Below, one piece after another: positions 24,833 to 41,152 of a stretch of 64,000 bases of DNA; the first letter of the stretch is position 1, and each line of letters begins with the position of its first letter. A program made the position numbers and the translations under genes. The DNA is from Aromatoleum petrolei (lineage in GTDB: Bacteria > Pseudomonadota > Gammaproteobacteria > Burkholderiales > Rhodocyclaceae): NCBI RefSeq assembly GCF_017894385.1, contig NZ_CP059560.1, forward strand, positions 1,736,001-1,800,000. Reading direction: 5' to 3'. Under the pieces are notes generated by a model. It was not told the origin of the DNA, did not search any database, and saw only the letters and a list, made by a program, of their open reading frames with translations.

Positions 24833-24878
24833 AAAAAAAGCCCGCCCTGCGCGGACTTATACCCTAAGGGTACATCGT
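24833..24878 (-). repeat. left terminal inverted sequence of the putative island
   Basis: Read outward on the minus strand it gives ACGATGTA, a palindrome TACCCTTAGGGTA sharing its first TA, about 13 bases, then GGGCGGGCTTTTTTT. The same elements in the same order and nearly the same spacing occur in opposite orientation at 41105-41152. Neither copy forms a terminator hairpin with the G-rich/T-tract part. Confidence 0.6.
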
Positions 24879-25292
24879 TCGTGAGTGAGTGACTCAGGAG
24901 CCCAGTTAGTACAGGTGTTTCAGCGTCACAGTCTTGCGATGTATAAATGCATCGTAATGCATCATAACTTTAAGGCGCCGGCGGCAACGTCGGCGCTTTT
25001 CTTTACGCGCATCGGACTCCCTGGGACGCTGCCCCAGACCCCGCACTCGCCGTGAGGCAACCGCCGGGGATGACGTCGCTTCGCTCCTATTCCCCCGGCA
25101 GCAGCCGGGAGCGTGGGAGCCCTACAGGGCCTCAAGAGGTTTTCGCGGCATAAACGGCGTCCTCCCCGCTGCGCGGGGTCCCCTCCATTTATTCCAGGGT
25201 CCTCTTGACCCCCCTTCGTGCAGCGGCGCCCGCATCCGTCATCGCCGGTTGAATACTCCTAGGGGCGATATTTGCCGCACTTCATCGGAGCT
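24879..25292. other. non-coding left inner end of the island
   Basis: There is no coding frame in these 414 bases. They hold an inverted pair GCGATG (24936-24941) and CATCGT (24950-24955), a terminator-like hairpin (GCGCCG 24975-24980 with CGGCGC 24991-24996, then TTTTCTTT), and further GC hairpins at 25094-25109 (CCCGGC/GCCGGG) and 25164-25178 (CCCCGC/GCGGGG). The mixture fits an element end rather than a promoter for any visible gene. The LysR gene ends at 25293 pointing into it. Confidence 0.5.
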
Positions 25293-26183
25293 CTATGCTT
25301 GGACGTATGGTGACATCGCGTCCTTGAGCACCTCTGCAAACGATTGAGCCAACAGGGAGCGCGGCCGGTTCGCCGGGTACATGATGCCCAGATCGAAGGG
25401 GATCGGCGGATCGAACGGTCGGCACTCTAGGCCGCGATCGGCGTATGTGCTGGCGGTGATCGGCTCAATGATCGACACGCCGATGCCGCTTGCCACCATC
25501 GTGCAGGCCGGCGCGAACATATGCATCTCTGCGCACACATTGAGCTTGGCGCGCGCCTGCTCAAAGGCTCTGGTGACGCGGAAAAAGGTCATGTGATCGC
25601 GATTCAACGTTACGATCGGAACACCGCTCAAATCCTTTGGGGTGATCCGCTTCTTGGCGGTAAGCGGATGGCCCTGCGGCATCACGCAGACACACCGCAC
25701 GCTGAACGGATCAACGTCGATTGCTGCGTCGTCGGCCGGAAGCTCCGCGATGCCCACATCGAACTGCCTGGCGGCGATCCATTCCTTGACTTCTGCCGAG
25801 GTCCTGACTTGCAGCATCACCTTGACGTTCGGCCGATCTGCCAAAAAGCCGGCCAGCAAGCGGGGTACGAAGTCGATGCCCAAGCCGGGCAGACACCCCA
25901 CCCTAAGCAGGCCAGCCTTCTGTTCGCGCAAGTCTTGCGCCAAGTGGGACAACTTGTCTAGGCCGATAAGAAGCTTCTCCGCTTCATCCGACAGGTGTAT
26001 GCCTTCTGCCGTCGGCGACAAGCGCCCGCCGGCGCGCTCGAAAAGCTTGATGCCGATGCGGCGTTCCAGATTGGCGATCAGGTTGCTGAGCGCCGGCTGC
26101 GAAACACCCAGGTGCTCCGCAGCCCTGGTAACGGTGCCCCTAGCGATAACGGCCCTCAAGGCTTGAAGTTCACGGACGTTCAT
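25293..26183 (-). CDS. LysR-family transcription regulator
   Basis: This 296-residue regulator has an N-terminal winged HTH (residues 1-60, MNVRELQALRAVIARGTVTRAAEHLGVSQPALSN region) and a substrate-binding effector domain (about 90-295). The start at MNVREL was chosen over one 20 residues upstream because HTH domains of this family begin right at the N-terminus. It is divergent from the ABC importer operon, across a 232-base region with a T-N11-A dyad, the classic layout for a LysR protein controlling its neighbour. The inducer is probably the imported compound, which is not known. Confidence 0.93.
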   Translation of the reverse strand: MNVRELQALRAVIARGTVTRAAEHLGVSQPALSNLIANLERRIGIKLFERAGGRLSPTAEGIHLSDEAEKLLIGLDKLSHLAQDLREQKAGLLRVGCLPGLGIDFVPRLLAGFLADRPNVKVMLQVRTSAEVKEWIAARQFDVGIAELPADDAAIDVDPFSVRCVCVMPQGHPLTAKKRITPKDLSGVPIVTLNRDHMTFFRVTRAFEQARAKLNVCAEMHMFAPACTMVASGIGVSIIEPITASTYADRGLECRPFDPPIPFDLGIMYPANRPRSLLAQSFAEVLKDAMSPYVQA

Positions 26184-26219
26184 GATGCTCGCGGCTGCTG
26201 TTGCTCTATTCGAATGTTC

Positions 26220-26234
26220 ATAACTTTGCATTAT
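26220..26234. promoter_or_regulatory. candidate LysR-type binding box
   Basis: ATAACTTTGCATTAT contains T-N11-A with ATAA/TTAT arms, as in LysR-type boxes. It lies 36 bases upstream of the LysR gene and about 180 bases upstream of the ABC importer start, in the shared AT-rich promoter region. Confidence 0.4.
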
Positions 26235-26415
26235 ACATGACACATAAAGAATTATTGGAAATTATTCATCGGTGCCAGTACGATTCCGCTCACTCGCTCA
26301 TGCAAGAAAGCGAAATCAACTGATGACCCGGCGTATGCAAATCGGCCCCGGAAGCGCCACGCTACCGATGCCCGGCAGGCAAACCCTCATCAATATCGGC
26401 TGAAGGAGACTAGAG

Positions 26416-27501
26416 ATGACCAAGCCCATTGAATCCCCATCGAATGCCAGTCGACGCCAGATGCTTAAGGCGTCGGTCGCGGTTGCCGGGGCAGCCGTCC
26501 TTGGCGCACCCGCCATCGTCCGCGCACAGCAGGACCGCAAGATTGTCACGCGCGATCCGGGTGGCCCGTTCAGCAAGGGTTTTGCCAAGGCGTTCTACGA
26601 GCCCTTCAAGAAGGCTACCGGCATCACCGTGATCGGCATCCCTTCGACGTCGGAGCCTGCTGGCATGGCCAAGGCGATGGTCGAGGCCAAGAACTACACC
26701 TGGGACATGGCGCACCTAAGCAAGTCCACTTCCATGTCGCTGTCCGAAATCGGCTACCTCGAGCCGATCGCGCCGGCAGCCGGTGCTGGCCCCAACCTGA
26801 GCAAGATTCCCGCAAACATGCGCGGCGAGTTCATCTTGGGCATCGACGTCTACGCGACCGTGCTGGCCTATCGCACCGACAGCATGAAGAAGGCGCCTAC
26901 CAGCTGGGCCGACTATTTCGACACCAAGGGCTTTCCGGGCAGGCGCGCGCTGCGCAAGAACCCGTTCGACACGATCGAAGAGGCCTTGCTGGCTGATGGC
27001 GTCGCGCCGGCTCAGCTCTACCCGCTGGACCTTGACCGTGCGTTTCGCAAGCTCAACCAAATTAAGCGCGACGTGGCGGTGTGGTGGGAGAACGGTGCGC
27101 AGAGCTCACAGTTGCTGCGCACCGGTGAAGTCGACGCGATGCCGGCATGGAATGGCCGTGCCCAAGTGGCGATTGACGATGGTGCACCAGTCAAGCTCGT
27201 CTGGAACCAGTCGCTGTGGACATTCGAAGGCTTCACCATACTGAAGGGTGGTCCGAACGTAGCGATGTGCCGGGAGTTCATCGAGTTCTGTGCCCAGCCG
27301 CAGCAGCAGGCCCTGTTCACAGACGACATCGCCTACGGCCCGACGGCACCCGATGCGTTCAAGTTCATCAAGCCCGAGCGCGCCAAACTGCTGCCGACGA
27401 ACCCGGACTATCTTCCCAATATGATCCAGGTCAACTCCGAGTACTGGGGCAAGAATCAGGGCGCGATCACCGAACGCTTCAACGCCTGGCTGCTGTCCTG
27501 A
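26416..27501 (+). CDS. ABC transporter periplasmic binding protein (PotD-like), TAT signal
   Basis: This 361-residue protein starts with a twin-arginine signal: SRRQMLK at residues 12-18, then a hydrophobic stretch to about residue 37 ending APAIVRAQ. Export should therefore use the TAT route, folded. The rest is a type 2 periplasmic binding fold of the spermidine/putrescine-like kind. It has an AAGGAGA ribosome site and begins the operon with the ATPase and fused permease genes. It should capture the cargo pathway's substrate. Polyamine, opine or amino acid are all possible. Confidence 0.9.
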   Translation: MTKPIESPSNASRRQMLKASVAVAGAAVLGAPAIVRAQQDRKIVTRDPGGPFSKGFAKAFYEPFKKATGITVIGIPSTSEPAGMAKAMVEAKNYTWDMAHLSKSTSMSLSEIGYLEPIAPAAGAGPNLSKIPANMRGEFILGIDVYATVLAYRTDSMKKAPTSWADYFDTKGFPGRRALRKNPFDTIEEALLADGVAPAQLYPLDLDRAFRKLNQIKRDVAVWWENGAQSSQLLRTGEVDAMPAWNGRAQVAIDDGAPVKLVWNQSLWTFEGFTILKGGPNVAMCREFIEFCAQPQQQALFTDDIAYGPTAPDAFKFIKPERAKLLPTNPDYLPNMIQVNSEYWGKNQGAITERFNAWLLS

Positions 27502-27604
27502 CACACTGACCACCCAGTCGGGGCTGATCGAAGAAACGGCGCTTGGCGTGCCGATGCGCTCGTTCGCCCCGAGCCGCAACGCTCGAACCTGATTGGATAT
27601 TGCA

Positions 27605-28711
27605 ATGCTGACTTCCGAAAATTTCAAGCTCCAGATTCGCAATGCCCGCAAGACCTACGGGCCGGTGATTGCACTGGAGAACACCAGCCTGGAAATGCGT
27701 CAGGGCGAATTCCTGACCCTGCTCGGGCCCTCTGGCTCTGGCAAGTCGACGCTGTTGATGGCGATTGCCGGCCTCAACAATCCCGACAGCGGCGCAGTCT
27801 GGATCGACGGCAAGCTGGCCACCTATCTGCCGCCATCCCAGCGCGATATCGGCATGGTGTTCCAGAACTATGCGTTGTTCCCGCACATGACGATCTTCGA
27901 CAACGTCGCCTTCCCGCTGCGCATGCGCAAGGTCGATGCTGCCGCGATCAAGTCGCGTGTGGCCGCCGTGCTCGAGACAGTGCAACTTGGCCATGTTGCG
28001 CAGCGTTTTCCGCGTGAGTTGTCAGGCGGCCAGCAACAGCGCATTGCACTGGCGCGCTGTTTCGTCTACGAGCCTTCGATCATCCTGATGGACGAGCCGC
28101 TCGGCGCGCTCGACAAGAAACTGCGTGACGCCCTGCAGCTCGAGATCAAGCACCTGCACGAAAAAATGGGCATGACGGTGCTCTACGTCACCCACGACCA
28201 GGAAGAGGCGATGGTGATGTCCGACCGCATCTGCCTGATGAACCACGCTGCAATCGAACAGATCGGCACACCGCAGGATCTGTACTTCAGGCCGAAGACC
28301 GTTTTTGCCGCGGATTTTTTGGGTGAGTCCAATCTGATCGACACCGTTGTGAGTGAGATTGAGGGGGAACGCATCAAGGTGACGGCAACCAACGGCAGCA
28401 CGGTCTGCGGACACGCGCAGGCCACCTTCAGAGTCGGCGAAAGCGCGATTGCCATGGTCCGCCCGGAAAGTGTCCGGCTGCTTCGCGCCGACGAAGCTGA
28501 AGAAAACCAGGTCCAGGCAAGCGTCAAGGAGATCATCCTGTCCGGGCCGGTGATCAAGTGCTATGTCGAACTCGCCGGCGGCGCCGAGATGAAGCTGACA
28601 CAACTGACCAGCGGGCCGGTTCACGGTTTGGCGAAAGGCCAGAAGGTGCGCCTGGGCTGGTCGGCCGATCGCACGGTGGTGCTGGCGAACAAGCGGGAGT
28701 TGGCATCATGA
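27605..28711 (+). CDS. ABC transporter ATP-binding protein (PotA-like)
   Basis: This 368-residue ATPase has Walker A LLGPSGSGKST (about 38-48), Q-loop VFQNYALFPHMT, signature LSGGQQQRIALARC, Walker B IILMDEPLGALD and the switch His in THDQEEAM. A TOBE-type beta domain occupies about 280-368, as in PotA and other importers with regulatory tails. The ATG at 27605 was preferred to a TTG four codons upstream. It overlaps the permease gene by four bases (ATGA), so translation is coupled. Confidence 0.95.
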   Translation: MLTSENFKLQIRNARKTYGPVIALENTSLEMRQGEFLTLLGPSGSGKSTLLMAIAGLNNPDSGAVWIDGKLATYLPPSQRDIGMVFQNYALFPHMTIFDNVAFPLRMRKVDAAAIKSRVAAVLETVQLGHVAQRFPRELSGGQQQRIALARCFVYEPSIILMDEPLGALDKKLRDALQLEIKHLHEKMGMTVLYVTHDQEEAMVMSDRICLMNHAAIEQIGTPQDLYFRPKTVFAADFLGESNLIDTVVSEIEGERIKVTATNGSTVCGHAQATFRVGESAIAMVRPESVRLLRADEAEENQVQASVKEIILSGPVIKCYVELAGGAEMKLTQLTSGPVHGLAKGQKVRLGWSADRTVVLANKRELAS

Positions 28712-30525
28712 GCCCGCAAAAGATCGCGGCGGCCTTGCCGGCACAGACGCCCGGCGGGACGAAGCGCCGCAACTCGACCTGGCGCAAGGCCTGGCCGATC
28801 TACCCGGCCCTGCTGTTCCTGGCGATACTGTTCGTGTACCCGATCGTGGTGTTGCTCAGCATGAGCTTTGCCAGCGATGCGGGGGTTGCGGGCTTCGAGC
28901 AGTATTCGCGCCTGCTTTCAAGCCCGGTGTATGCCAAGGTTCTGGCCATCACCTTCAAGACGGCCGGCTGGACCACAGTGATTGCGATGATTGCCGGCTA
29001 CCCGGTGGCCTACCTGATCGCCACCGCCAGGCCAAGCATCTACAAGTTGCTGATCGTCCTGGTGCTGATGCCGTTCTGGACCAGTTTTCTAGTGCGCATC
29101 TTCGCGTGGATGGTGCTGCTCGGACGCCATGGCGCGATCAACGACTTGCTGACGGCTCTCGGGATTGTCGACGCGCCGATCTCGATGATCTACAACTTCA
29201 CCGGCGTATTGATCGGGATGGTGCACGCCATGATGCCGCTGTGTGTGCTGACGATGTTGTCGGTGATGGAGAAGATCGATGGCAACCTGATGAAGGCCGC
29301 CTCGACGCTCGGCGCGCGCAAGGGCTCGATATTTTGGAAGATCTACTTCCCGTTGTCGCTATCTGGCGTAGCCGCCGGTGGTCTGCTGGTGTTCATCACC
29401 TCGCTCGGCTTCTTCATGACGCCGGCCCTGCTCGGCGGCGCGGGCGAGACGATGATCGTGCAAGAGATCATCTTCCAGGTGCAGAACATGCTGAATTGGC
29501 GCTTTGCGGGCGCGGTGTCGGTGCTGTTGCTGGTTTCGGCACTGATCGTCTTCGTGATCTATGACGCCTTGCTTGGCCTGTCCACTCTGTCGGGTGAGTC
29601 AGGCGGGGCGCGTGCCAACCTGATCGGTCGGATTTCATCTCAGGTTGGTGGCCAGATCCTCTCGGTTCTGGCCTGGATCTTCGACAGCGCCGGCGCCTTG
29701 TTCGACAAGATGATGCCTGCGCGCGGCGACAAGCCGCGCAAGCAGCAAGGTGCCAGATTGCTGTGGATCGGCGGTTTGGCGGCGATCGGCTTCCTCGTCT
29801 TGCCGGCGTTGTTCGTCATCCCGATCTCGTTCACGCAAGACAGCTTCTTGTCCTGGCCGCCGAACGGCTTCACCTTGAAGTGGTATCAAGCCGTCTTCGC
29901 CGACGGTCGCTGGGGCGGGGCTGCAGGCCGTTCGTTCATCGTGGCGTTGCTGGCAGCCGCGGGTGGGACGCTGATCGGCGTGCCCGCTGCATTCTTCCTC
30001 GTTCGCCAGCGCATGGCGGGCAAGACTGCGCTGCTCGCCTTCTTGATGGCGCCGATGATCCTGCCGCACATCATCGTTGCCGTCGCGCTGTTCTATGTCT
30101 TCTCTCAGATCGGCTTGATCGGGACCACGTTTGGCCTGGTGCTGGGGCACACCGTGCTGACGATTCCCTATGTGGTGATCACAGTGATGGCCGTGATCAA
30201 AGGCTATGACATCCGCCTCGATCATGCGGCCTGGACGCTGGGGGCATCCCGTGTCAAGACCTTTTGGCACATCACCATACCGGTTCTGAAGTCCGGCCTG
30301 ATCGCCGCGTTCATGTTCGCCTTCATCACCTCGTTCGACGAATTGACGATTGCGCTGTTCCTGACCGGAGGGGAGATAACTACCTTGCCCAAGCTGATGT
30401 GGGACGACGCGCTGCTCAAGGTCAGCCCGATGCTCGCCGCGGTGGCCACCCTGTTGCTGGCATTCATGACTGTGCTGATCCTGGCATCGGCCGGGCTGCA
30501 GCGGCGCGGCAGCAAGCCGGCCTGA
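28708..30525 (+). CDS. fused ABC permease (PotB-like plus PotC-like halves)
   Basis: This 605-residue membrane protein joins two complete importer permeases. Half one (about 25-325) has about six membrane segments and an EAA-type coupling loop in the region AASTLGARKGSIFWKIYFPL. Half two (about 350-600) has another set and its own loop DHAAWTLGASRVKTFWHITIPV. PotB and PotC are normally separate, about 280 residues each. Here the linker (about 325-350) is polar and Arg/Lys-rich. The start is fixed by the ATGA overlap with the ATPase gene. One chain would supply both membrane subunits. Confidence 0.93.
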   Translation: MSPQKIAAALPAQTPGGTKRRNSTWRKAWPIYPALLFLAILFVYPIVVLLSMSFASDAGVAGFEQYSRLLSSPVYAKVLAITFKTAGWTTVIAMIAGYPVAYLIATARPSIYKLLIVLVLMPFWTSFLVRIFAWMVLLGRHGAINDLLTALGIVDAPISMIYNFTGVLIGMVHAMMPLCVLTMLSVMEKIDGNLMKAASTLGARKGSIFWKIYFPLSLSGVAAGGLLVFITSLGFFMTPALLGGAGETMIVQEIIFQVQNMLNWRFAGAVSVLLLVSALIVFVIYDALLGLSTLSGESGGARANLIGRISSQVGGQILSVLAWIFDSAGALFDKMMPARGDKPRKQQGARLLWIGGLAAIGFLVLPALFVIPISFTQDSFLSWPPNGFTLKWYQAVFADGRWGGAAGRSFIVALLAAAGGTLIGVPAAFFLVRQRMAGKTALLAFLMAPMILPHIIVAVALFYVFSQIGLIGTTFGLVLGHTVLTIPYVVITVMAVIKGYDIRLDHAAWTLGASRVKTFWHITIPVLKSGLIAAFMFAFITSFDELTIALFLTGGEITTLPKLMWDDALLKVSPMLAAVATLLLAFMTVLILASAGLQRRGSKPA

Positions 30526-30530
30526 AATGA

Positions 30531-30570
30531 CCCCGCCACGCTCACTTCGTTGGCTGCGCTCCCCCGAGGG
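30531..30570. repeat. GC-rich intergenic sequence of Comamonadaceae style
   Basis: A stretch containing CACGCTCACTTCGT and GCTCCCCCGAGGG follows the permease gene. Similar sequences are, from memory, common between genes in Comamonadaceae (Burkholderiales). If that is right, it hints at the donor of the cargo genes. Confidence 0.3.
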
Positions 30571-30627
30571 ACCTCAGTACTTCGAAACGGCCGGGCGGTA
30601 CTGTGAGATAGGTAAAGGAGCAGTTTG

Positions 30628-31362
30628 ATGCAAATGCAAGGCGGGCAAAACATCTGTGGCATCCCGATTGGCGTGCTGTGCCTGGAGTCGTACTTCCCGA
30701 AGCCGCCAGGGCATATCAAGTGCCCCAGCAGCTTTCGCTTTCCGATTGCCTACAAGGTCATCAACGGTGTGACGGTCGCGAAGCTGCTGCGTGAGCCCAG
30801 TGGAGCGCAGCTGGATCATTTCATCGCCGCAGCGCGAGAGCTCGAAGCCGAAGGTGTTCGCGCGATCACCGGCAGTTGCGGCTTTCTGGCGCTTTACCAG
30901 CAGGAGCTGGCAGCCGCGGTCCAGGTGCCGGTATTTGCTTCCAGCCTGTTGCAGGTGCCATTGGTTCGTCGGATGCTGCGACCGGACCAGAAAGTGGGCG
31001 TCTTGACTGCCCACAAGGCGAGCCTGACACCGGCGCACCTGCGCGCCGTCGGTGTTGACGAGGGCATGGTCTGCCTGTCGGGCATGGAGGGACAGCCCGA
31101 GTTCAGCGACGTCATTCTGGAGGGCAAGCGCCATTCGATGGATCTTGCCAAGGTGGAGTCAGAAGTAGTCGAGGTTGCGGTCTTGCTAGCGAAGGCCAAG
31201 CCGGAGGTCGGCGCGATCGTGCTTGAGTGCACCGACATGCCGCCGTTTGCGCACCGGATTCAGCAGCAAACGGGATTGCCGGTGTTTGATCTTTCCACGC
31301 TGACGAACATGGTCGGCGAAGCGGTCAACCGTCAGCCGTACAGCGGAATATGGCCGCGCTGA
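30628..31362 (+). CDS. Asp/Glu/hydantoin racemase-superfamily protein
   Basis: This 244-residue protein has the two-cysteine layout of the Asp/Glu racemase superfamily: one in ITGSCGFLA (near 84) and one in VLECTDMPP (near 199), each able to act as acid or base. Members include amino-acid and hydantoin racemases, maleate isomerase and arylmalonate decarboxylase, so the reaction is open. The ATG at 30628 follows an AAAGGAG site. It lies between importer and FAD oxidase. A racemase making the D-form for the DadA-like enzyme is a reasonable inference. Confidence 0.82.
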   Translation: MQMQGGQNICGIPIGVLCLESYFPKPPGHIKCPSSFRFPIAYKVINGVTVAKLLREPSGAQLDHFIAAARELEAEGVRAITGSCGFLALYQQELAAAVQVPVFASSLLQVPLVRRMLRPDQKVGVLTAHKASLTPAHLRAVGVDEGMVCLSGMEGQPEFSDVILEGKRHSMDLAKVESEVVEVAVLLAKAKPEVGAIVLECTDMPPFAHRIQQQTGLPVFDLSTLTNMVGEAVNRQPYSGIWPR

Positions 31363-31386
31363 GCCGGTGACAAAAAGGAGCAAGAG

Positions 31387-32682
31387 ATGTCTGCAGGATC
31401 TGGCGCACGGCGCGAGGTAACGATTGTCGGCGCCGGCATTGTCGGCATATCGGCCGCCATCAATTTGCAGCGCGATGGCTGCAAGGTCACCGTCGTCGAC
31501 CGCGGTCCTCCTGGCGAGGGAACCTCCATGGGGAATGCCGGCGTATTTGCCAGTTGCGGGTTCGTCCCGGTAGCGACACCGGGCTTCGCATGGAAAGCAC
31601 CAGGCATGTTGATGGACCCACTAGGCCCGCTATCGCTCAGATGGTCGTATATGCCGCGGATGATTCCATGGCTGGTCAGCTTCCTTCGAAACAGCTCACC
31701 GCAGGCAGTGGAGCGGATTGCCGACGCCATGAGCGCGCTCGTCGGCAGCAGCGTCGAGGATCATCTGGCCTTGGCGGCCGGCACAGGGGCCGAGCAATGG
31801 GTGCGGCCGTCGCCTTATCTCTATGTCTACGCGGACGAAGCTGCGTTCTTGGCCGAGTCTTATGCCTGGGGACTGCGGCGCGCGCGTGGAGTGAAGTGGG
31901 CCACGCTGCGGGGCGACGCAGTACGCGAGTTCGAGCCGGCTCTGGGCTCAGATTACCGATTTGCGGTGGTACTCGAGCGCCACGGCTATACGCCTGACCC
32001 GCTGCAACTGGTCACGGCTTTGGCGGCGCATTTCGTCCGCGAAGGCGGCACCGTCTTGCAGCGTGAAGTCAAGGATATCGAGATTGGCGCCGACGGCCCC
32101 ACCCGGCTGCTCACCGATCAAGGCCCGGTCGATATCGGGCGGCTGGTGATCAGCGCCGGTGCCTGGTCCGGCCGCCTGGCTGCGCGGCTCGGCAGCCCGG
32201 TGCCGCTGGAAAGCGAGCGTGGCTACCACGTCACCCTGCAAGAGCCGGGGCTGATGCCGCGTTACCCGATCATGTCGACCGGCGGCAAGTTCGTTGCGAC
32301 ACCGATGGCCTGCGGCCTGCGCGCTGCCGGAATCGTCGAATTCGGTGGCCTTGATGCACCAGCAAAGCCGGACATGACGCTGCGCCTGCTCAAGCATGTG
32401 AAGAACCTCTTTCCTGGGGTGTCGACAGAGAAGTACACCGAGTGGATGGGGCACAGGCCATCGCTGCCGGACAGCTTGCCAGTGATCAGCCGCTCACCGC
32501 ATTTCGAGTCGGTATTCTTCGCCTTCGGCCATCAACATGTGGGCATCACCGCGGGGCCCAAGACCGGGCGCCTAGTGGCCGATATGGTGGCAGGCCGCGT
32601 GCCGACCATCGATATCAGCCCTTTCAGCGTCAACCGATTCCAGGCTGCACGCCGGCCTGTGGCCGACCCGGCAATGGCGTAG
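31387..32682 (+). CDS. DadA-like FAD-dependent D-amino-acid dehydrogenase or amine oxidase
   Basis: This 431-residue flavoprotein of the DAO family has the N-terminal dinucleotide loop VTIVGAGIVGISAAINLQRDG (residues 11-31), GTSMGNAG flavin contact near 43, and the C-terminal FAD-site segment FAFGHQHVGITAGPKTGRLVADM. It is close in design to DadA and related enzymes that oxidise D-amino acids, sarcosine-like amines or opines to imines. It has an AAAGGAG site. The RidA-like gene directly after it would clear the imine product. Confidence 0.88.
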   Translation: MSAGSGARREVTIVGAGIVGISAAINLQRDGCKVTVVDRGPPGEGTSMGNAGVFASCGFVPVATPGFAWKAPGMLMDPLGPLSLRWSYMPRMIPWLVSFLRNSSPQAVERIADAMSALVGSSVEDHLALAAGTGAEQWVRPSPYLYVYADEAAFLAESYAWGLRRARGVKWATLRGDAVREFEPALGSDYRFAVVLERHGYTPDPLQLVTALAAHFVREGGTVLQREVKDIEIGADGPTRLLTDQGPVDIGRLVISAGAWSGRLAARLGSPVPLESERGYHVTLQEPGLMPRYPIMSTGGKFVATPMACGLRAAGIVEFGGLDAPAKPDMTLRLLKHVKNLFPGVSTEKYTEWMGHRPSLPDSLPVISRSPHFESVFFAFGHQHVGITAGPKTGRLVADMVAGRVPTIDISPFSVNRFQAARRPVADPAMA

Positions 32683-33544: not shown

Positions 33545-33698
33545 GTCAAAGAAAGGGCAGCCGCGCCACCCCCCGGCTAGGTATGGGATTGCCGGACGGC
33601 TACTCAGTTCATGGGGCCGCTTTGGGTCGTTTTGAGCCAGTCAGGTCGGACGCGATTCAGTGGCCATCTGCATGCGATTTCGCAACTGGCGCGGCGGG

Positions 33699-34361
33699 TC
33701 AGTCGTTTAGGACCTTGCGAATCGCCCGGGCAAAGCCCACCTCGAACACGGTACGGCCGCGCTCGTTGAGGATTTCGCCATGGCTGCCTTCCTTCAGGCC
33801 CCGCTCGTCGAGGTAGTCAGCCGACACCGCCTTCTGTAAAGCGACGCGCTCGGACGGGGTCAGTTGCGCGGACAGGGCGAGGACGGCCACCGGCTGCGCC
33901 CCGGGCGCGGATGAGACGGTTGCGCCTAACGGGCGGCGGTCGACAGTGACCTGCGTGTTGGCCTTCAGCACGTTGAGCTGCGCCTTGAGCTTGTCGCGCT
34001 CGGCGATGATGGCCTGCATGATGGAGCGGAGGGCCGGGTCCTCGATGCGCATCAAGTAGTCATGGCTCGCCAGGGTCTTCGGGGGCTTCGGTGCGGGCGG
34101 TCCGGCGTAGGCACCCCAGGCTTCGATGAGCGCCTTGTAGTCCGCCGACTGGGCGTTGTAGAGCGCACGGCCCTTCATGATGCCTTCGGCTTCGGCCAGG
34201 CGGCCGATGGCTGCAAGCGAGAAATCGCGCGAGCCGGTCGCATGCTGCCTGCGACAGAGCTCGTGCATCTTCTCGAGGTTCCCCCGCCGGTTCGAGCGCG
34301 CGGCCTTGGCAAGCAGGGACTGCAGGACCGCGTCCGGGTGGATGTCGGTCGCGCCGTTCAT
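33699..34361 (-). CDS. gmtX: small recombination partner protein, GmtX-like
   Basis: This 220-residue soluble protein has a helical N-terminal region with ANLEKMHELCRRQH-type charge pattern (near 28-41), a short central helix likely to coil (about 110-130), and an Arg/Lys-rich C-terminal part. It overlaps the preceding integrase gene by four bases (ATGA). Its place as third and smallest member after two tyrosine recombinases matches GmtX of the Gamma-Mobile-Trio, as I remember that family; Tn554 has a comparable small third protein, TnpC. The name rests on order and size more than motifs. Confidence 0.65.
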   Translation of the reverse strand: MNGATDIHPDAVLQSLLAKAARSNRRGNLEKMHELCRRQHATGSRDFSLAAIGRLAEAEGIMKGRALYNAQSADYKALIEAWGAYAGPPAPKPPKTLASHDYLMRIEDPALRSIMQAIIAERDKLKAQLNVLKANTQVTVDRRPLGATVSSAPGAQPVAVLALSAQLTPSERVALQKAVSADYLDERGLKEGSHGEILNERGRTVFEVGFARAIRKVLND

Positions 34362-36958
34362 GCTTCATCTTCCAGCAGAGACTGTCGGCCGCCAGGCATC
34401 GCTGAAACCGGATGAGGCGTGGGTAGCAGCGAGGCGAGGTCCATGTCGAAGTGCTGGCTGAGACGCGCGCCGGCGTCCATCAGGCGAATCACTTCGCGTT
34501 GACCGAGCGCGGGATTCACCGGGTTCATCTGCTGGGCAAGGTGCCGCATGAAGGCGTTGCCGGCGAGCAGCTGCTCCTGTTCGCTCAACAGCATGAACAC
34601 GGGCGGCAGGTCGTCGCGGTAGAGGACCGCGTCGAGCAACTGGCTGCGGCGGAACACCGCCTTGCCGGGCTCGAGGTCGGGATAGACCTCGACGTTTTCG
34701 CACACACCAGCGAGCTGGAGCAGTTCGGACTCCGTTTCCTCGAAGGCGATATTCACATCGCCCGCCGTGCCGGCCGCCACCAGCGGCGTGCCGTCGCCCT
34801 GCGGCGCTTCGAGCGCCGTCTTGCAGCGTTCGATGAGACGCCAGCAGGCCACCAGGTCCTCCGCGAAGTCGCTGAAGCGCTTCATGGCGCTCTCCCACAC
34901 CCGCTCGGCCTGGTGGTAGGCGTCGAGCCGGGTGAAGGGCTGGCCGGCCTCCTCGGCGTCCGCCTTCTGCCTCTTCAGGTCCTGAAGCTCGTTTTCACGG
35001 TTGAGACAGGCATTGCGCGCCTCGTCGAAGTGGTAGGCGAGCGCGTTGAAGTGGGCGGCCAGCGCCGGCAGGTAGTGCGGCTCGGTCACGAACCAGCGGC
35101 AGCGCACGCAGTTGCGGCTGCCGCCCGGAACGGGCCCGTACTTAGGCGTTGAAGCCGAGCCCAGGTTTGGCCCGCCGTTGTGGCAGCCCCCCACCGCGCC
35201 GTTGTCCTCGACCTCGCTGGTGTTGCCGCCGACGAGACACAGGCCGTGGTGCATCGGCATCCAGCCCACCGGGTTGCGCGCGGCCGGATGCGGCGGGACA
35301 GCAGCGGCGAGGCTGGTCACGCTGTTGCAGATGGCCGTTTGCAGCAGTTCCTCGTGCTCGGTGTCGAGGAGGAAGTTCTGGATGCTCGCCTCCTTGGCCG
35401 CCTCCAGCCGCTCGCGGGCGCCGAGCAGCTCGTCGCGGATGTACGTCGCGCCGGGCTTCGTGTAGTAGAGCGTCATCAGCAGGCGGCTGTGCCCGACGAG
35501 CTTCTGCAGCACGGGGAACGGCACCTGGCCTTCGAGCGCCAGCGCGGTGATGAGGGAGACGCGCACGCTGTGCAAGGGGAAGAGTGTCGCCCACGAGTTT
35601 GTCGCCCGTTCTTCCGGCTGCGGCAGGAAGCGAATCGGCGTACCGTTGCGATGGGTCTCGCCCCGGTCGGCGAGCCGTTGCTCCAGCGCTTCGAGCAGGG
35701 AGAACCATAGCCTGTCCGGCATATTCCGGGTCACTGGCAGATGGTAGCCCCCGTCTCGTGCCTCCGGCAGCCTGAAGAGGAAGCAGGTGTCGGGGTAGCC
35801 CGCCAGTTGCACCTCGCTTTTCGCTTGGACGTGGCGAGCGTCCAGTTCCGTCCAGGCCGTGCGCCGCGAGACCGGGTTGTACTTTGCCTGCCAGTTGCGC
35901 AGCTTCTCCAGCCAGTAGCAGCCGTCCTGATGTACCGGTCCGCCGAAGGCCCACGGCAGGACGTAGCCCTTCTCGGCGCCGGACTTGGCGATGTCGGCGG
36001 TCTTGTTGGTGTTGATGTAGAGCACGGTCGAGACCGCCTCGCCATCGGCGAGCGGGTTGGTGCGGCGAAACACGCCCTGTTGCAGCGGCCGCCTTTCGCT
36101 GCCCTGCGCGAGCCGACTCGGGTTCAGCGTCCAAGAGCCGCCCGCGTAGCGCCAGGTGTCGGCCTCGCCCGAGTCGAGCATGCGCACCTGGAAGGTGCGT
36201 AGCGGCAGGATGAGCTTCACGAGCAGGGCGACCCAGCGCACCGGGCTCCACATCTCCAGACGCGTTCCCGTGCTTAGCGGGCGCTCACGCCACACGCAGT
36301 CCGGGTCCTTCCCGTCAATCTGCTCTTCGGTCACCTCGAACCAGTCGGGCGCGCTATGCCCGCGTTGACCGATTTCGGCCCCCAGTGCGTTCTGCGCCCA
36401 CTGCCAGTCACGGAAGTGCGGCCCGGCCGCGAGCATCTGCCGTAGCTCGTCGATGTAGCCGTAGGGCAGTGGCGAATGCACGCTCTCGTCGTGGTCGGGC
36501 AGCCCGCTATTGGTCAGCCGGGGCACGGGGTTGTGGAAGGCGGGTGACACCACCGGCTGGCCGTTGTCGGCGGCTTCGCTGAACTCGCGCAGCAGCACGA
36601 AATGCAGGAAGGCGTGGATGACGTTGTTGTATTTGATACCCTTCGCGGAATCCGGACAGGCTGTTCGATAGAAGTCGGGCAGGACGGTGGTGCGCGCCAG
36701 GAACACCGCCGGGTCGAGCGGCAGGCCCTGCATGATGAGATAACGTTCGAAGAAGGCCACCAAGGCGTGGAGCCTCATGTCGACCCCGCGTGTTTCGCCT
36801 TTCATCCACTCCACCGCCAGCGCTCGCCACGCGGCGAGCTGCGGATAGCCGCGTTCGACCCAGCCGAGGGTGGCATCTGTTTCCCGTGTCACCCCTTTCT
36901 CCCTGGGGGCCGGGACGGCGGATGCTCCGGACGCGCTTGTTTTCTTCTTTTCGCTCAT
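34358..36958 (-). CDS. gmtZ: large tyrosine recombinase, GmtZ (VPA1269)-like
   Basis: This 866-residue protein contains a tyrosine-recombinase catalytic core: His463 and Arg466 in LHSVRVSLIT, His490 in LVGHSRLL and Tyr498/Tyr499 in TLYYTKPG. More than 350 residues follow, including a CVRC cysteine pair near 617 and a coiled region near 645-675. That long tail is unusual for phage integrases (350-450 residues). It starts 9 bases after the GmtY-like gene and overlaps the GmtX-like gene. Size, position and catalytic core match the large integrase of the Gamma-Mobile-Trio, and Tn554 TnpB is a looser parallel. Confidence 0.75.
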   Translation of the reverse strand: MSEKKKTSASGASAVPAPREKGVTRETDATLGWVERGYPQLAAWRALAVEWMKGETRGVDMRLHALVAFFERYLIMQGLPLDPAVFLARTTVLPDFYRTACPDSAKGIKYNNVIHAFLHFVLLREFSEAADNGQPVVSPAFHNPVPRLTNSGLPDHDESVHSPLPYGYIDELRQMLAAGPHFRDWQWAQNALGAEIGQRGHSAPDWFEVTEEQIDGKDPDCVWRERPLSTGTRLEMWSPVRWVALLVKLILPLRTFQVRMLDSGEADTWRYAGGSWTLNPSRLAQGSERRPLQQGVFRRTNPLADGEAVSTVLYINTNKTADIAKSGAEKGYVLPWAFGGPVHQDGCYWLEKLRNWQAKYNPVSRRTAWTELDARHVQAKSEVQLAGYPDTCFLFRLPEARDGGYHLPVTRNMPDRLWFSLLEALEQRLADRGETHRNGTPIRFLPQPEERATNSWATLFPLHSVRVSLITALALEGQVPFPVLQKLVGHSRLLMTLYYTKPGATYIRDELLGARERLEAAKEASIQNFLLDTEHEELLQTAICNSVTSLAAAVPPHPAARNPVGWMPMHHGLCLVGGNTSEVEDNGAVGGCHNGGPNLGSASTPKYGPVPGGSRNCVRCRWFVTEPHYLPALAAHFNALAYHFDEARNACLNRENELQDLKRQKADAEEAGQPFTRLDAYHQAERVWESAMKRFSDFAEDLVACWRLIERCKTALEAPQGDGTPLVAAGTAGDVNIAFEETESELLQLAGVCENVEVYPDLEPGKAVFRRSQLLDAVLYRDDLPPVFMLLSEQEQLLAGNAFMRHLAQQMNPVNPALGQREVIRLMDAGARLSQHFDMDLASLLPTPHPVSAMPGGRQSLLEDEA

Positions 36959-36967
36959 GAGGATTCC

Positions 36968-38368
36968 TCAGTCGTTGTGTTCGATGCCGGGCAGCGACAG
37001 GCCGGACGCGGGCAGTGTCCCGGCGTGCTTGCCCCGCAGCCGCTGCGCTGCTGCCTCCAGCGCCGCAAACGCCTCGCGGGTGTTGGCCTGCGTATAGACC
37101 TCCTGGCTTTCCATGGAGGCGTGATGCATGCAGCGGCGGATGAGCGCCTTGTCGATACCGGCGTTCTTGAGCCGCCGGCCATAAGCGTGGCGGTGGCCGT
37201 GCGCCGTCGTGCCGAGCGCCTTGCCCACCGTGAGCCCGATGCGCTCGCAGGCGGCGGCAAGCGCCTTGTTGTACTGGCCAAGGCAGTACATCCCGCCGAC
37301 CGGCTCGCGGCCCAGATTGACGAAGGCGAAGGGGTGGTCGCGGTCGAGGCGCGCGACCTGTTCGAGGTAGCGGTGCCACAGCTGCAGGAACCATTCGCCA
37401 TACTCCGGCACGAACCAGTACGCCTGCTTGTAGTAGGGGCCATCGTGCATGCCGCCCTTCCAGCCGGCGTGCCGGCTGTCCATGAGTTCCGTGCGGGGTA
37501 CGAGGCCGAAGCGCTGGGCGAGGTATTCCGCCCGGTTGCCCTTGCGCGGTCGTCCCCGCTCGTCACGCCAATCGGCGGGCGCGGTGCCGTGGCTCGGGTG
37601 GTGGATGCGGACCAGGGCCTGGCGCGGGTTGGCGGGGTCCGGGAACACATCCGGGATGTAGAGATGGAAGGGCTCCGACTCGCGGAATCCCGCGCCATGC
37701 AGCAGCAAGGTGATGAGCATGCCGCGATAGTCGGTGCGCCCGGCCGCACAGAAGCCCTTGACGAGCAGTTCCTCGAAGCGCTCTTCGGGGAAGGCCGGCG
37801 GCTCCCCATTTTCGACCTTGGGCAGGCGCTGGCCCCGCACGCGATGTCCGGTCTCGGCGGGAGAGGCGTTCGCCGCCCACGTGTGGCCGAGGAAGGCCTT
37901 GCTGCGCCGGTACTGGTAGGCGGCCTCGTCGGCCTGCCGGTCGAAGGCGCCCCCCGCATAGCGCGGATTCACCTTGGCGGCCTCGGGGCGCATTTCACTC
38001 AGCCAGTCGAAGAAGTCGGTGAGGTGGGTGACGATGTGCGAGGCGTCCTGCGGTGAGCGCGGCGCCCAGCACAGGCCGCTCGGGTCAAGGCCTGTCTGGC
38101 GGTCGAAGGTCCCGGTGTAGAGCCGCTGGGCGAAGTTCTGGAACAGGCGGTAGGTGTCACGCTCGGCCGGGTTGGTCTGCAGGTATTCGAGGAACATCCG
38201 CACCGAGCGGTTCACCTTCGTCATCCAGGTGAGGCTGCGGTCGTGGCTGCGATGGAGGCAGTAATCGAGTAGCGGCTCCAGCACGCCGGCGGGCGTCAGC
38301 AAGGCGGGGAGCTCCGTATAGACGCCCGTGGCATCGGTGTAGACGCGGGCCTTGACGGTCACGAACAT
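36968..38368 (-). CDS. gmtY: tyrosine recombinase, GmtY-like
   Basis: This 466-residue recombinase has C-terminal catalytic motifs AHGHRHAYGRRLK (Arg393), CMHHAS (His416) and EVYTQA (Tyr425 as likely nucleophile). The central region LITLLLHGAGFRESEPFHL probably holds the first catalytic Arg. The start overlaps the helicase stop by ten bases. It precedes the large recombinase by nine bases, so both would be made together. Two unlike tyrosine recombinases side by side are a mark of Tn554-like and Gamma-Mobile-Trio elements. Confidence 0.78.
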   Translation of the reverse strand: MFVTVKARVYTDATGVYTELPALLTPAGVLEPLLDYCLHRSHDRSLTWMTKVNRSVRMFLEYLQTNPAERDTYRLFQNFAQRLYTGTFDRQTGLDPSGLCWAPRSPQDASHIVTHLTDFFDWLSEMRPEAAKVNPRYAGGAFDRQADEAAYQYRRSKAFLGHTWAANASPAETGHRVRGQRLPKVENGEPPAFPEERFEELLVKGFCAAGRTDYRGMLITLLLHGAGFRESEPFHLYIPDVFPDPANPRQALVRIHHPSHGTAPADWRDERGRPRKGNRAEYLAQRFGLVPRTELMDSRHAGWKGGMHDGPYYKQAYWFVPEYGEWFLQLWHRYLEQVARLDRDHPFAFVNLGREPVGGMYCLGQYNKALAAACERIGLTVGKALGTTAHGHRHAYGRRLKNAGIDKALIRRCMHHASMESQEVYTQANTREAFAALEAAAQRLRGKHAGTLPASGLSLPGIEHND

Positions 38369-40572
38369 GCGGCGGACTCCGTCATCAACTCGGCCAGGGC
38401 GACTTGGCGGTGCGAGGCATGCGGCGGGGCCTCGACGGCACGGTGGGCCACCTCCACGTCGCCCACCAGGATGACCTGGGTTTTCGCGCGGGTCATGGCC
38501 GTGTAGAGCATCGTCCGGTCCAGGTTGCGCGCCGCATAGACCGGAATCAGCACGCGCGGGAACTGGCTGCCCTGGGCCTTGTGCACCGTCACCGCGTAGC
38601 CGAGTTCCAGCGCATCAAGGACCTCCTCGGTCACCGGCCGGCGCTCGCCGTCGTCCCAGCGCACCCACGCCAGCGTCAAGCCCTTCGGCTCGCCGTCGGC
38701 CCCAAAGAGCGGCTGCGGCGGGTCCTCGATGGTTTCGATGTGCCCGAGGCTGCCGTTCTGCAGGCCCCACTCGTGCAGGTTGCGGGTGCACAGGACCGGC
38801 TCGCCTAGCCGCAACCCGGTATCCTCGCGGCGCTCGCGCTCTTCGCTCCAGACGAACAGACGACGCGATGTTCCGGCCAGGGCACTCTGGCACAGCCCAT
38901 TGAGCGCCTTGGCTGAAGCCACACCGCGCTCGCGGGTGAAGGTCAGCACCTGCGTATGTACGGGGTCTGCCAGATACAGCCGCAGCACCGCGTCGGCCAG
39001 CGCATCGGGTGCGCAGGGCAGGAAGGCCAGCGCCTCGTCCGCGGTGTCGGGCAGTGACGGCCATTGTCCGTCGCGTACCGCCCGGGCCCCGGTGGCAATG
39101 GCACCGCCGAAGCGCCTCACTTCGGTGAGCTCGACCCGCGGCACTGTCGGAACGCTGACCAGCGCGTGCAGGGTCAGGCCCGGCCCCACCGGCGGAAGCT
39201 GGAATGGGTCGCCGATGAAGACGAGGCGGCACGACGCGGGTATGGCATTGAGCAGTCGATAGGCCAGCAGGATGTCGAGCATGCTCGCCTCATCGACGAC
39301 GAGCACGCTACTCTCGGGCAACCCATGCGGTGCGACGTTGCGCAGAAACCCGGCAATCGTCATCGCCGGACGGTGCGTGGCTTCGGTCAGCCGTTTGGCC
39401 GCGCGACCGGAGAGCGCCATCGCGTAGATGTGCTGGCCGCTTTGCTCCAGCAGGGCTTCGACCGCCTTCAGCACTGTGGTCTTGCCGACCCCCGCGCTGC
39501 CGGTGATGAGCACGAGAGGAAGGCGCGCCACCGCGTGCACGGCCTCGCGCTGTGCGGCGTTCAGTGTGAAGGCGGGCATGCCGAGCGCGGCGGCCTCGTC
39601 TCGCTCGAAGCGGGTGAGGAACGCCTCCACGTCCGGCGGGTCCGCGAGTACAGCTTCCCGTCCGAGCCGGGCCCGAAGCGCAGTTGCAACGCCCTGTTCG
39701 ATGAGGCGTGGGCCCAGGGCATGGAACCGGTCACCAGAGACCTGGACCAAGTGATGTGCCTGCGCGAAGGAGATGGCAGTAGCCGCCTGTGCCTTGCCGA
39801 CTAGCCGCGCCAGCGCGGCCTCCACCGCCTGGCGCGCGCAGCAGGTGTGCCCCGCATCGAACGCCTGATACATCACGGCCTCCACGGCAGCCGCCAGGCG
39901 GCGCTCGTCGTCAGCGGGAAGCCCGAAGTGCTGCCGGGCCAGGGTGTCCGCCGCAATCCAGTTCATCCCGAACGCCAGCAGCCGATAGGGGTCGGCTTGC
40001 ACGGCGGCCAGCGCCTCGCCCTCATAGACGTCCAGGAGCTTGCGCGACAGGCACAGGCTCAAGCCGACGCGCTGGAACCAGCGCAGTGCCGCTGCATCCC
40101 CGTACTGGCGCCAGCCGGCGAGGAGCCCCTGCGCCAGTTCTGCCCCGACCACGCCGGCCAGGGTGTCGGCGTCGGCTTGGTCGAGGCTGTCGTACAGCGA
40201 TTCGCCCAGCCGCTCCCACAGCCGCCGTGCCTTGACTTCGCCAATGCCCGGGAACGCCGGACTGGTCGACAGCAACTGGATGATGTGCTCCCCACAGGGT
40301 CGCCGCAGCTCGGCATCGGTCGCGGTGATGCGGTGCTCGATGACGCGATAGCCGTCCACCGCGTATTCCGTCGGCACCGCCTTGCCAGTCAGCCGCCACC
40401 ACTGGCCCTGCTCGACCTCGGCGACCGCCCGGCGCGAGGGCAACGTCACGGCGTACCGTGGAGCGCCGGCCACCAGCCGGCCCTCTTCGTCAATCGCTAA
40501 CCCTGAGAAGACCGTTGCCCTGGCCGAGCGACGACGCACGCGCAGCACCCGCAGGAGGATAGCCTCGCTCAT
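38359..40572 (-). CDS. RecD2-like superfamily 1 helicase
   Basis: This 737-residue helicase begins with an OB-like segment and a helix-hairpin-helix region (FPGIGEVKARRLWERLG, about 100-116). The motor follows, with Walker A ITGSAGVGKTT (Lys364), Walker B VLVVDEASM and, near the C-terminus, the nucleotide-coupling motif YAVTVHKAQGSQFPRV. This is the RecD2/TraI-like layout of 5'-3' DNA helicases not bound to RecBC. ATG at 40572 overlaps the upstream gene's stop (ATGA). Its place inside the recombinase operon suggests it serves element excision, replication or end processing. Confidence 0.85.
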   Translation of the reverse strand: MSEAILLRVLRVRRRSARATVFSGLAIDEEGRLVAGAPRYAVTLPSRRAVAEVEQGQWWRLTGKAVPTEYAVDGYRVIEHRITATDAELRRPCGEHIIQLLSTSPAFPGIGEVKARRLWERLGESLYDSLDQADADTLAGVVGAELAQGLLAGWRQYGDAAALRWFQRVGLSLCLSRKLLDVYEGEALAAVQADPYRLLAFGMNWIAADTLARQHFGLPADDERRLAAAVEAVMYQAFDAGHTCCARQAVEAALARLVGKAQAATAISFAQAHHLVQVSGDRFHALGPRLIEQGVATALRARLGREAVLADPPDVEAFLTRFERDEAAALGMPAFTLNAAQREAVHAVARLPLVLITGSAGVGKTTVLKAVEALLEQSGQHIYAMALSGRAAKRLTEATHRPAMTIAGFLRNVAPHGLPESSVLVVDEASMLDILLAYRLLNAIPASCRLVFIGDPFQLPPVGPGLTLHALVSVPTVPRVELTEVRRFGGAIATGARAVRDGQWPSLPDTADEALAFLPCAPDALADAVLRLYLADPVHTQVLTFTRERGVASAKALNGLCQSALAGTSRRLFVWSEERERREDTGLRLGEPVLCTRNLHEWGLQNGSLGHIETIEDPPQPLFGADGEPKGLTLAWVRWDDGERRPVTEEVLDALELGYAVTVHKAQGSQFPRVLIPVYAARNLDRTMLYTAMTRAKTQVILVGDVEVAHRAVEAPPHASHRQVALAELMTESAACS

Positions 40573-40988
40573 CGTGCGAGCCGTCCGGTTTCGGCGAGAA
40601 GCGATTCCATCGACTCGAAACGATTGAGTCTGCGTCGCAGCTCGGCCAGCTCCGCCCGCAGGCCGGCGTTTTCGGCTTCGAGCTTGCGCAGCCGCTCCGC
40701 CTCGGTCGCGGCCTGCAGCTGACCCTTCGCACGCAGCGGCACGGCATCGCCCGGTGCCTGTGCCGGCAGGACGCCTCGTGACCGAAGCTGCTCCTCGAGT
40801 TCGTGCAGGGCTTCCTTGATGCGCGGATTCTGCACCAGCGTCGAACGGCCGAAGGCGCACTCCCGACAGATTTCACCCCGGTTCAGTCGCCCCTGCGTGA
40901 CCATCTCCCGAAAGTCGGCATCGGTCTTGGATGTTGCCCAAGTTTGGAAGGCCAGGAAGTTCTGCTCCGCGCGCTCTTGCCCATTCAT
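40569..40988 (-). CDS. small DNA-binding-like protein, VPA1267 family-like
   Basis: This 139-residue protein begins the recombination operon. Residues 1-70 (NGQERAEQNFLAFQTW, then GRLNRGEICRECAFGRSTLVQNPRI) read like a helix-turn-helix. Residues 90-128 form a probable coiled coil (LRKLEAENAGLRAELAELRRRL). I recall such proteins as the VPA1267 family, found beside GmtY/Z/X genes in Vibrio. Its start codon lies inside an inverted repeat, so it may control its own operon. A role as accessory end-binding protein is inference. Confidence 0.65.
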   Translation of the reverse strand: MNGQERAEQNFLAFQTWATSKTDADFREMVTQGRLNRGEICRECAFGRSTLVQNPRIKEALHELEEQLRSRGVLPAQAPGDAVPLRAKGQLQAATEAERLRKLEAENAGLRAELAELRRRLNRFESMESLLAETGRLAR

Positions 40989-41015
40989 CGTATGCCATCC
41001 TTTTTACATACGATG
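40986..41015 (-). promoter_or_regulatory. 9-bp inverted repeat over the start of the recombination operon
   Basis: CATCGTATG (40986-40994) and CATACGATG (41007-41015) flank 12 bases that include the ribosome site. The first arm contains the start codon of the 139-residue gene. Protein binding here, or an mRNA hairpin, would block expression. Confidence 0.65.
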
Positions 41016-41022
41016 CCACAAT

Positions 41023-41051
41023 AAGATATAGCTATATGCAAAGCAAGGCAA
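41023..41051 (-). promoter_or_regulatory. candidate promoter of the recombination operon
   Basis: On the minus strand, TTGCCT (41046-41051) and TATCTT (41023-41028) are 17 bases apart, each 4/6 to sigma-70 consensus. A perfect palindrome ATATAGCTATAT (41026-41037) overlaps the -10 element and may be another binding site. Confidence 0.45.
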
Positions 41052-41104
41052 AAAACACCCCTGCGAGAGGGGGGCTTGAGAGAAAACTGAGTAAAAAACC
41101 TCTT

Positions 41105-41152
41105 ACGATGTATTCCCCCCTGGGAGGAATAATGGACGGGCGGGCTTTTTTT
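41105..41152 (+). repeat. right terminal inverted sequence of the putative island
   Basis: Read outward on the + strand: ACGATGTA, a palindrome opening TATTCC and closing GGAATA (41111-41131), six bases, then GGGCGGGCTTTTTTT (41138-41152). It mirrors 24833-24878. The dctM stop codon is only 16 bases beyond. Confidence 0.6.

What the first reader, a model, noticed from the sequence alone, without database searches (positions are those of the whole stretch)
24833..41152. Matched inverted end sequences bound a 16.3-kb island
The minus strand of 24833-24878 and the plus strand of 41105-41152 share, in order: ACGATGTA, a short palindrome, and an exact 15-mer GGGCGGGCTTTTTTT, with gaps of 23 and 25 bases between the outer blocks. 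Both read outward. The palindromes differ in sequence but keep position and symmetry, which suggests selection for structure. The G-rich/T-tract part has no hairpin partner, so a terminator does not explain it. Together they frame all the foreign-looking genes.
Basis: seen in the sequence. Interest (0 to 1): 0.88.

Follow-up and report, generated by a model that had tools for sequence, protein, structure and literature searches.

The report
Mobile island splitting a transcription terminator
A 16-kb mobile DNA island of a known kind has jumped exactly into the loop of the hairpin that ends transcription of a neighbouring gene, and several relatives did the same elsewhere, which suggests that its recombinases pick hairpin-forming sites as landing pads.

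Summary
GGGCGGGCTTTTTTT at both ends is host DNA: the two arms of one bidirectional intrinsic terminator behind the dctM-like gene, pushed 16.3 kb apart by an insertion. The missing hairpin partner is the other end. In 14 of 14 same-genus loci holding both flanks the terminator is unbroken. The island (24854-41132) is a Gamma-Mobile-Trio (GMT) island: gmtY, gmtZ, gmtX, VPA1267-family and RecD2-like helicase genes, with transport and amino-acid cargo. Its own ends are ACGATGTA plus the palindromes; 6 nt separate each from a host arm.

Relatives repeat the pattern: in 14 of 24 paired ends the 6 nt are centred on a strong inverted repeat (background 0.74%); in the 16 pairs not picked by complementarity, 6 of 16. 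Eight of 24 show none or are doubtful. A second, diverged GMT island in this genome split another terminator. Unbroken sites place the target's own 6 nt at the GmtY end (three exact, one near), as described for SEs. Whether hairpin or duplex is recognised is open. The founding GMT paper was not readable here, so novelty of the target rule is unproven.

The parts
24833..24847 (-). Host: 3' arm and T-tract of the terminator behind the dctM-like gene (GGGCGGGCTTTTTTT), left half
   Evidence: unbroken terminator in 14 of 14 genus loci with both flanks
24848..24853 (-). 6-nt spacer CGCGCA, inferred to be brought in by the circular intermediate ('fingerprint')
   Evidence: Register from relatives and empty sites; inference for this copy
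24854..24878 (-). Distal element end ACGATGTACCCTTAGGGTATAAGTC
   Evidence: Same kind of motif downstream of gmtX in relatives
25293..26243 (-). Cargo: LysR-type regulator
   Evidence: Pfam HTH_1, LysR_substrate
26416..30525 (+). Cargo: ABC transporter: solute-binding protein 26416-27501, PotA-like ATPase 27593-28711, ORF 28558-30525 taken to be the permease
   Evidence: the 28558-30525 ORF was not profile-scanned; its name is my reading
30625..32682 (+). Cargo: Asp/Glu racemase family 30625-31362 and FAD-dependent oxidoreductase 31387-32682 (D-amino-acid dehydrogenase models match below their cut-offs)
33140..33460 (-). NYN-domain fragment
   Evidence: Pfam NYN matched only at profile positions 93-144 of 145
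33699..34361 (-). gmtX
   Evidence: NCBIfam NF040692, 235.7 bits, cut-off 40
34358..36958 (-). gmtZ, large integrase; R254, K319, H463, R466, H490, Y499 invariant
   Evidence: NF047926, 1025.3 bits, cut-off 600; invariant in 19 rows and 13 rows; catalytic roles assigned from recall
36968..38368 (-). gmtY, tyrosine recombinase; R229, K304, H390, R393, H416, Y425 invariant
   Evidence: NF040693, 531.7 bits, cut-off 340; invariant in 16 rows; catalytic roles assigned from recall
38359..40860 (-). RecD2-like helicase (optional module; a homologue was detected in 2 of the 31 relatives)
   Evidence: TIGR01448 337.8 bits, below its cut-off of 500; distribution
40569..40988 (-). VPA1267-family protein
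   Evidence: NF040697, 170.3 bits, cut-off 90
41050..41072 (-). Element's own inward-facing terminator (5-bp stem CCCCT/AGGGG, then TGTTTTTT), just inside the GmtY-side end
   Evidence: Read by eye; terminators at a similar position in relatives
41105..41132 (+). Proximal (GmtY-side) element end ACGATGTATTCCCCCCTGGGAGGAATAA
   Evidence: Motif recognised in 18 of 31 relatives
41133..41138 (-). 6-nt spacer CGTCCA, inferred to be the target's own loop ('footprint'); several genus empty sites have CGTTCC
   Evidence: exact in three other elements
41139..41152 (-). Host: A-tract and 5' arm of the same terminator (AAAAAAAGCCCGCC), right half

Best explanation
A Gamma-Mobile-Trio island integrated by tyrosine recombination into the loop of the bidirectional intrinsic terminator behind the dctM-like gene. 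Shown: gene content, ends, the split terminator, intact terminators in relatives, and the same arrangement in several other GMT islands, including one in this genome whose proteins are 36-53% identical. Inferred: a circular intermediate made by GmtY/GmtZ/GmtX recombines across a 6-nt spacer with a target that is an inverted repeat around about 6 nt, most often a terminator stem-loop. The target's 6 nt stay next to the GmtY end; 6 nt carried from the previous site end up at the far end. The element usually carries its own terminator a few tens of bases inside the GmtY end, which could replace the broken one.
For: Joined flanks fold into a 15-bp stem. Intact terminator in 14 of 14 same-genus loci with both flanks. 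NCBIfam matches for GmtY, GmtZ, GmtX above cut-off. Arm complementarity of 24 end pairs 8.63 of 10 against 6.30 +/- 0.22 for re-paired ends, 0 of 2000 as high; for the 16 pairs not chosen by complementarity 8.0 against 5.97 +/- 0.29, 0 of 5000. Spacer centred within 0.5 nt on a strong hairpin in 14 of 24 (6 of those 16) against 1618 of 218,327 background positions, 0.74%. Ten of 24 pairs have both AAAA on the 5' side and TTTT on the 3' side. Three exact empty sites (IncC plasmid; Pseudomonas; site of the second island) and one near, all with the target's 6 nt at the GmtY side. Terminator inside the proximal end 24 of 29 by rule against 60 of 1000 random segments.
Against: 8 of 24 pairs show no convincing hairpin centred on the spacer: L053 and L055 (one coding-looking site used in both orientations; L053 has a centred but weak 8-bp imperfect stem with a 10-nt loop), L060, L101, L102, and three doubtful distal assignments, L063, L069, L099. 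L048 and L075 have complementary arms with A- and T-tracts but failed the strict centred-hairpin test. L047, L058 and L062 have no TTTT in the 20 nt of the 3' arm. The window, L050, L056 and L062 seeded the motif and OWN2, G014, L127 and L130 were found or registered with help of complementarity, so only the 16-pair figures are free of that bias. For the G014 island the relatives carry a longer hairpin, so its empty site is inconclusive. Five of 29 proximal ends lack an internal terminator by the rule, and two of the 24 positives look spurious. No excision or transposition was observed.
Confidence: 0.88

Rival explanations
1. One reading: ACGATGTA, palindrome and 15-mer together form a composite inverted end recognised by the element's recombinases.
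For: All three blocks occur at both ends, inverted.
Against: In relatives the block outside the 6-nt spacer differs from site to site and in most pairs is complementary to its own partner across the island; same-genus genomes without the island have an unbroken terminator there.
Confidence: 0.03
2. Passive filter: insertions land anywhere, and only those in harmless terminators survive.
For: Terminators are intergenic; GMT islands usually carry an inward terminator.
Against: The 6-nt spacer sits on the hairpin centre to within half a base in 14 of 24 (background 0.74%); survival alone would not choose the loop. Inverted repeats with little or no T-tract are also used (L047, L058, L062).
Confidence: 0.1
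3. The recombinases recognise the terminator arms as a double-stranded palindromic core site, as ordinary tyrosine recombinases do, and folding is irrelevant.
For: A 6-bp spacer between inverted arms is the usual core-site geometry (recalled); element ends in two subfamilies are inverted repeats about 6 nt.
Against: By eye the target arms share no sequence with the element's arms and little with each other beyond G+C richness, so base readout would need to be very loose. No formal motif test was made.
Confidence: 0.5

Closest known systems
Gamma-Mobile-Trio (GMT) islands (Mahata et al. 2024, Nat Microbiol; not held; seen only through passages and reference list of PMC12039261)
   Same: gmtY, gmtZ, gmtX and VPA1267 family by NCBIfam; variable cargo beside a recombinase operon
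   Different: Cargo here is transport/amino-acid metabolism, not the T6SS toxins and antiphage systems named in PMC12039261; whether the terminator target was reported is unknown to me
[quoted passage not shown]
   Same: Two catalytic tyrosine recombinases plus a small protein; inverted ends; 6-nt footprint and fingerprint with the same polarity
   Different: No tfp gene between the recombinases here; the words 'terminator', 'hairpin' and 'palindrom' do not occur in that paper's main text
GInts (PMC5385486: parts 1-2 of 6 seen, plus a word search)
   Same: Recombinase operon plus small protein at one end, cargo, 6-nt staggered exchange
   Different: ginABCD has three recombinases; direct imperfect repeats; targets such as the ssb gene end; 'terminator', 'hairpin' and 'stem' do not occur in its main text
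Tn554 family
   Same: Large and ordinary tyrosine recombinase plus small TnpC, 6-bp footprint (as described in PMC10214605)
   Different: Sequence relation not tested; resemblance of ACGATGTA to the Tn554 core is recalled only
Group IIC introns (passages of PMC7923331)
   Same: Use stem-loops of Rho-independent terminators or attC at their target
Integron integrase / attC (PMC4792948: start of abstract in listing only)
   Same: Tyrosine recombinase recombining single- with double-stranded partners, asymmetric, resolved by replication
   Different: Cassette system; attC sites are dedicated, not host terminators (recalled)

Membership tests
GMT island | gmtY, gmtZ, gmtX adjacent in that order | tested here: met
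   NCBIfam NF040693, NF047926, NF040692, all above curated cut-offs; coordinates
GMT island | Discrete island with cargo, absent from relatives at that site | tested here: met
   Empty site in 14 of 14 genus loci with both flanks; gmtZ homologue in 2 of 17 genus genomes, the own one and G014
GMT island | Catalytic residues of the recombinases intact | tested here: met
   Residues invariant; their catalytic role is assigned from recall
GMT island | Mobility | not testable with these tools
   Only comparative evidence
SE | intA-tfp-intB-srap operon | tested here: inconclusive
   No gene between the two recombinases; no comparison with SE proteins was made
SE | 6-nt footprint/fingerprint polarity | tested here: met
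   Three exact empty sites, one near
GInt | Three tyrosine recombinase genes plus ginD | tested here: not met
   Two recombinase genes by family profiles
Tn554 family | tnpABC homology | not tested
   No Tn554 sequence was compared

The most novel reading that the evidence does not exclude
GMT recombinases do not read a target sequence but a target shape: they exchange one strand into the loop of a folded DNA hairpin (terminator stem-loop exposed as single strand or cruciform), and replication completes the insertion, an integron-like reaction aimed at host terminators. The 6 nt at the far end would then record the loop of the previous landing site.
Probability: 0.3. Interest if true: 0.82.

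Novelty: new member of a known kind. Interest (0 to 1): 0.6.

Why it matters
GMT islands carry antiphage systems and T6SS toxins between bacteria (passages of PMC12039261). A target rule of 'inverted repeat around about 6 nt, usually an intrinsic terminator' would explain how they settle at many unrelated sites with little harm, would let their ends be found automatically by looking for split terminators, and would raise a testable question: can a tyrosine recombinase choose targets by palindromic or folded structure without shared sequence? The 6-nt fingerprint also offers a trace of earlier insertion sites.

Tried and rejected
Composite end signal including the 15-mer: rejected by empty sites. 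Stand-alone terminator at each end: half right; each half is a remnant, although the left half still folds with element bases (AGTCCGC/GCGGGCT). Blind search for paired arms plus inverted ends: put the pairs of OWN2, G014 and L130 on top (some a base or two out of register) but not those of the window, L098 or L127, and was too noisy to use. My first guess that the far-end 6 nt belonged to the target was wrong; the empty sites showed the GmtY-side 6 nt do. Search for other subfamilies' end motifs in 16 further loci: no new paired ends. Elements left out of the 24 pairs because one end was missing, at a contig end or unpaired: L052, L054, L059, L097, L126 (proximal only), L065, L076 (distal only), L100 (the proximal motif found belongs to another copy), and Marinobacter L128, Halomonas L129, P. 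mandelii L131 and the other loci without recognised ends. Host-gene orientation at junctions: ORF calls in GC-rich DNA too unreliable to use. GmtZ model: mean pLDDT 50.0, not used. GmtY model: mean pLDDT 65.8; best matches XerA, IntI4, XerH and Cre at E 5.7e-6 and weaker with low TM-scores, so it supports only the fold class. The GmtY alignment held one bad row (L062, two residues, my frame slip); the residues are invariant in the 16 rows. In one search two of the 24 positives (window, L097) look spurious; the window's real internal terminator has a 5-bp stem, below the rule's cut-off, and was read by eye; the five misses are L060, L063, L069, L099, L102. In one search the reversed control pattern matched once in 28 genomes. 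Contig identity was inferred from equal contig lengths. In one search only 11 of 16 fetched loci of the second island's site could be read (three not located, two read on the wrong strand). Paper searches for terminator-targeting recombinases: no such report among the listed titles and abstract starts (25 of 206 papers listed). The main GMT paper is not held.
Full report
Observation. The two composite sites are present at the stated coordinates. The 15-mer is found only at these two places in the window, and the composite only at these two places in the 5.4-Mb genome.

What the 15-mer is. Joined, they fold into a 15-bp stem with A- and T-tracts, a bidirectional intrinsic terminator. Of 29 non-self loci fetched, all of the same genus, match both flanks; in 14 of 14 an unbroken stem-loop with a T-tract follows the gene directly, and six of the 14 have a loop of exactly 6 nt.

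What the island is. NCBIfam names the recombinase operon gmtY, gmtZ, gmtX, all above curated cut-offs, with a VPA1267-family gene and, below its cut-off, a RecD2-like helicase upstream. This is a GMT island. Both recombinases keep residues that fit the R-K-H-R-H-Y set of tyrosine recombinases (roles from recall). Cargo is a LysR regulator, an ABC transporter, an Asp/Glu racemase family protein and an FAD oxidoreductase. G+C is 0.615 for the cargo stretch, 0.679 for the operon and 0.662 for the 10-kb flanks. The helicase was detected in 2 of the 31 relatives, so it is not a fixed part.

Exact ends. A protein search gave 31 relatives. In 18 of them a GmtY-side end like TTATTCCCCCCAAC..GGAATACATMGT was recognised, and in 17 a far end like ACKATGTACC.TTAGGGTATAAGTC. 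A pattern search for the far end in 28 genomes behind 29 of the 31 loci found 15 matches in 12 genomes (reversed control: 1); 12 of the 15 lie on a contig of the same length as the one holding the operon, the other three at small contigs or contig ends of one genome. Outside each end come 6 nt, then a host arm.

A target rule. I paired ends for 24 elements in three subfamilies; those with only one recognised end were left out (listed under Tried and rejected). Arm complementarity over 10 positions averages 8.63; re-pairing gives 6.30 +/- 0.22, never as high in 2000 trials. Eight of the 24 were seeded, found or registered partly through complementarity or a T-tract (window, L050, L056, L062, OWN2, G014, L127, L130). 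Without them, 16 pairs average 8.0 against 5.97 +/- 0.29, 0 of 5000; 8 of 16 score at least 9 of 10 and 6 of 16 have both A- and T-tracts. By a stricter test, spacer centre within half a base of a strong hairpin centre, 14 of 24 and 6 of 16 pass, against 1618 of 218,327 background positions. Ten of the 24 have both AAAA and TTTT beside the arms, so most but not all strong targets look like terminators. The exceptions are listed under evidence against.

Diverged members. A second GMT island in this genome (about 1934822-1947340, 12.5 kb, proteins 36-53% identical) split a terminator behind a gene that I read as cytochrome c; in 6 of the 11 same-genus loci where the intact site could be read (16 fetched) the loop is CCGCGG, the same 6 nt found at its GmtY end. 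A third, in G014, lies behind a gene I take from recall to be folE2. An island in a Shewanella IncC plasmid lies in an inverted repeat that is intact in another IncC plasmid, GCGCCCATTTAGGGCGC. One in a Vibrio alginolyticus plasmid splits a terminator. For the last two the far-end register was shifted by one base after seeing the IncC empty site.

Polarity. The target's own 6 nt remain at the GmtY side in three exact cases (L062 with L107; L127 with L132; OWN2 with L135) and one near case (this island: CGTCCA against CGTTCC). This is the polarity described for SEs, and a like copying of 6 bp is described for Tn554-related elements (PMC10214605). In 16 strong hairpins the first and last base of the GmtY-side 6 nt can pair in 11, and those of the far-end 6 nt also in 11 (binomial P 0.011 each), as expected if the far-end 6 nt came from an earlier loop; this is suggestive only.

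A replacement terminator. By rule, 24 of 29 GmtY-side ends carry an inward-facing terminator within 150 bp inside, mostly 35-59 bp from the end, against 60 of 1000 random segments. Two of the 24 look spurious; the window's real one, 41050-41072, has a 5-bp stem and was read by eye. The insertion thus breaks one terminator and supplies another in the same direction.

Mechanism and limits. By eye the target arms share no obvious sequence with the element arms, only inverted symmetry about 6 nt. This allows either loose recognition of a duplex palindrome or recognition of a folded hairpin, as by integron integrases. I cannot separate these. The GmtY model matches Xer, integron and Cre recombinases weakly. 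Mobility was not observed.

Known or new. The island is a new member of a known kind. I found no report of terminator targeting by GMT, SE or GInt elements in what I saw of the held library (listings; word searches in two papers), but the founding GMT paper is not held, so the rule may already be in print.

Noticed in passing
L039:4822-17340 (G000:C1:1934822-1947340): Second, diverged GMT island in the same genome, inserted in the terminator behind a gene read as cytochrome c.
   Followed up: yes
L041:10858-13547: A third, apparently partial copy: VPA1267-family and helicase homologues, no gmtY/gmtZ/gmtX match in the fetched 20 kb; Integrase_2 matches in the genome lie only in the two islands.
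   Followed up: partly
L053:8279 and L055:8277: Two GMT islands in Paraburkholderia and Caballeronia occupy the same coding-looking site in opposite orientations, a target unlike a terminator; their ends differ slightly (ATATTCC, AAGTT/GAGTT).
   Followed up: partly
window 38359-40988: Helicase homologue detected in only 2 of 31 relatives (L066, L067) but also beside the diverged copies in this genus: a swappable upstream module.
   Followed up: partly
L100:236 and 20793: A P. syringae plasmid stretch carries a GmtY-side motif on the opposite strand besides the far-end motif of its own operon, so there may be a second GMT copy.
   Followed up: no
L126, L127, L130: In these diverged gammaproteobacterial islands the VPA1267-family gene lies after gmtX instead of before gmtY.
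   Followed up: no
window 33140-33460: Partial NYN-domain gene between cargo and the gmt operon, possibly a remnant of earlier cargo.
   Followed up: no
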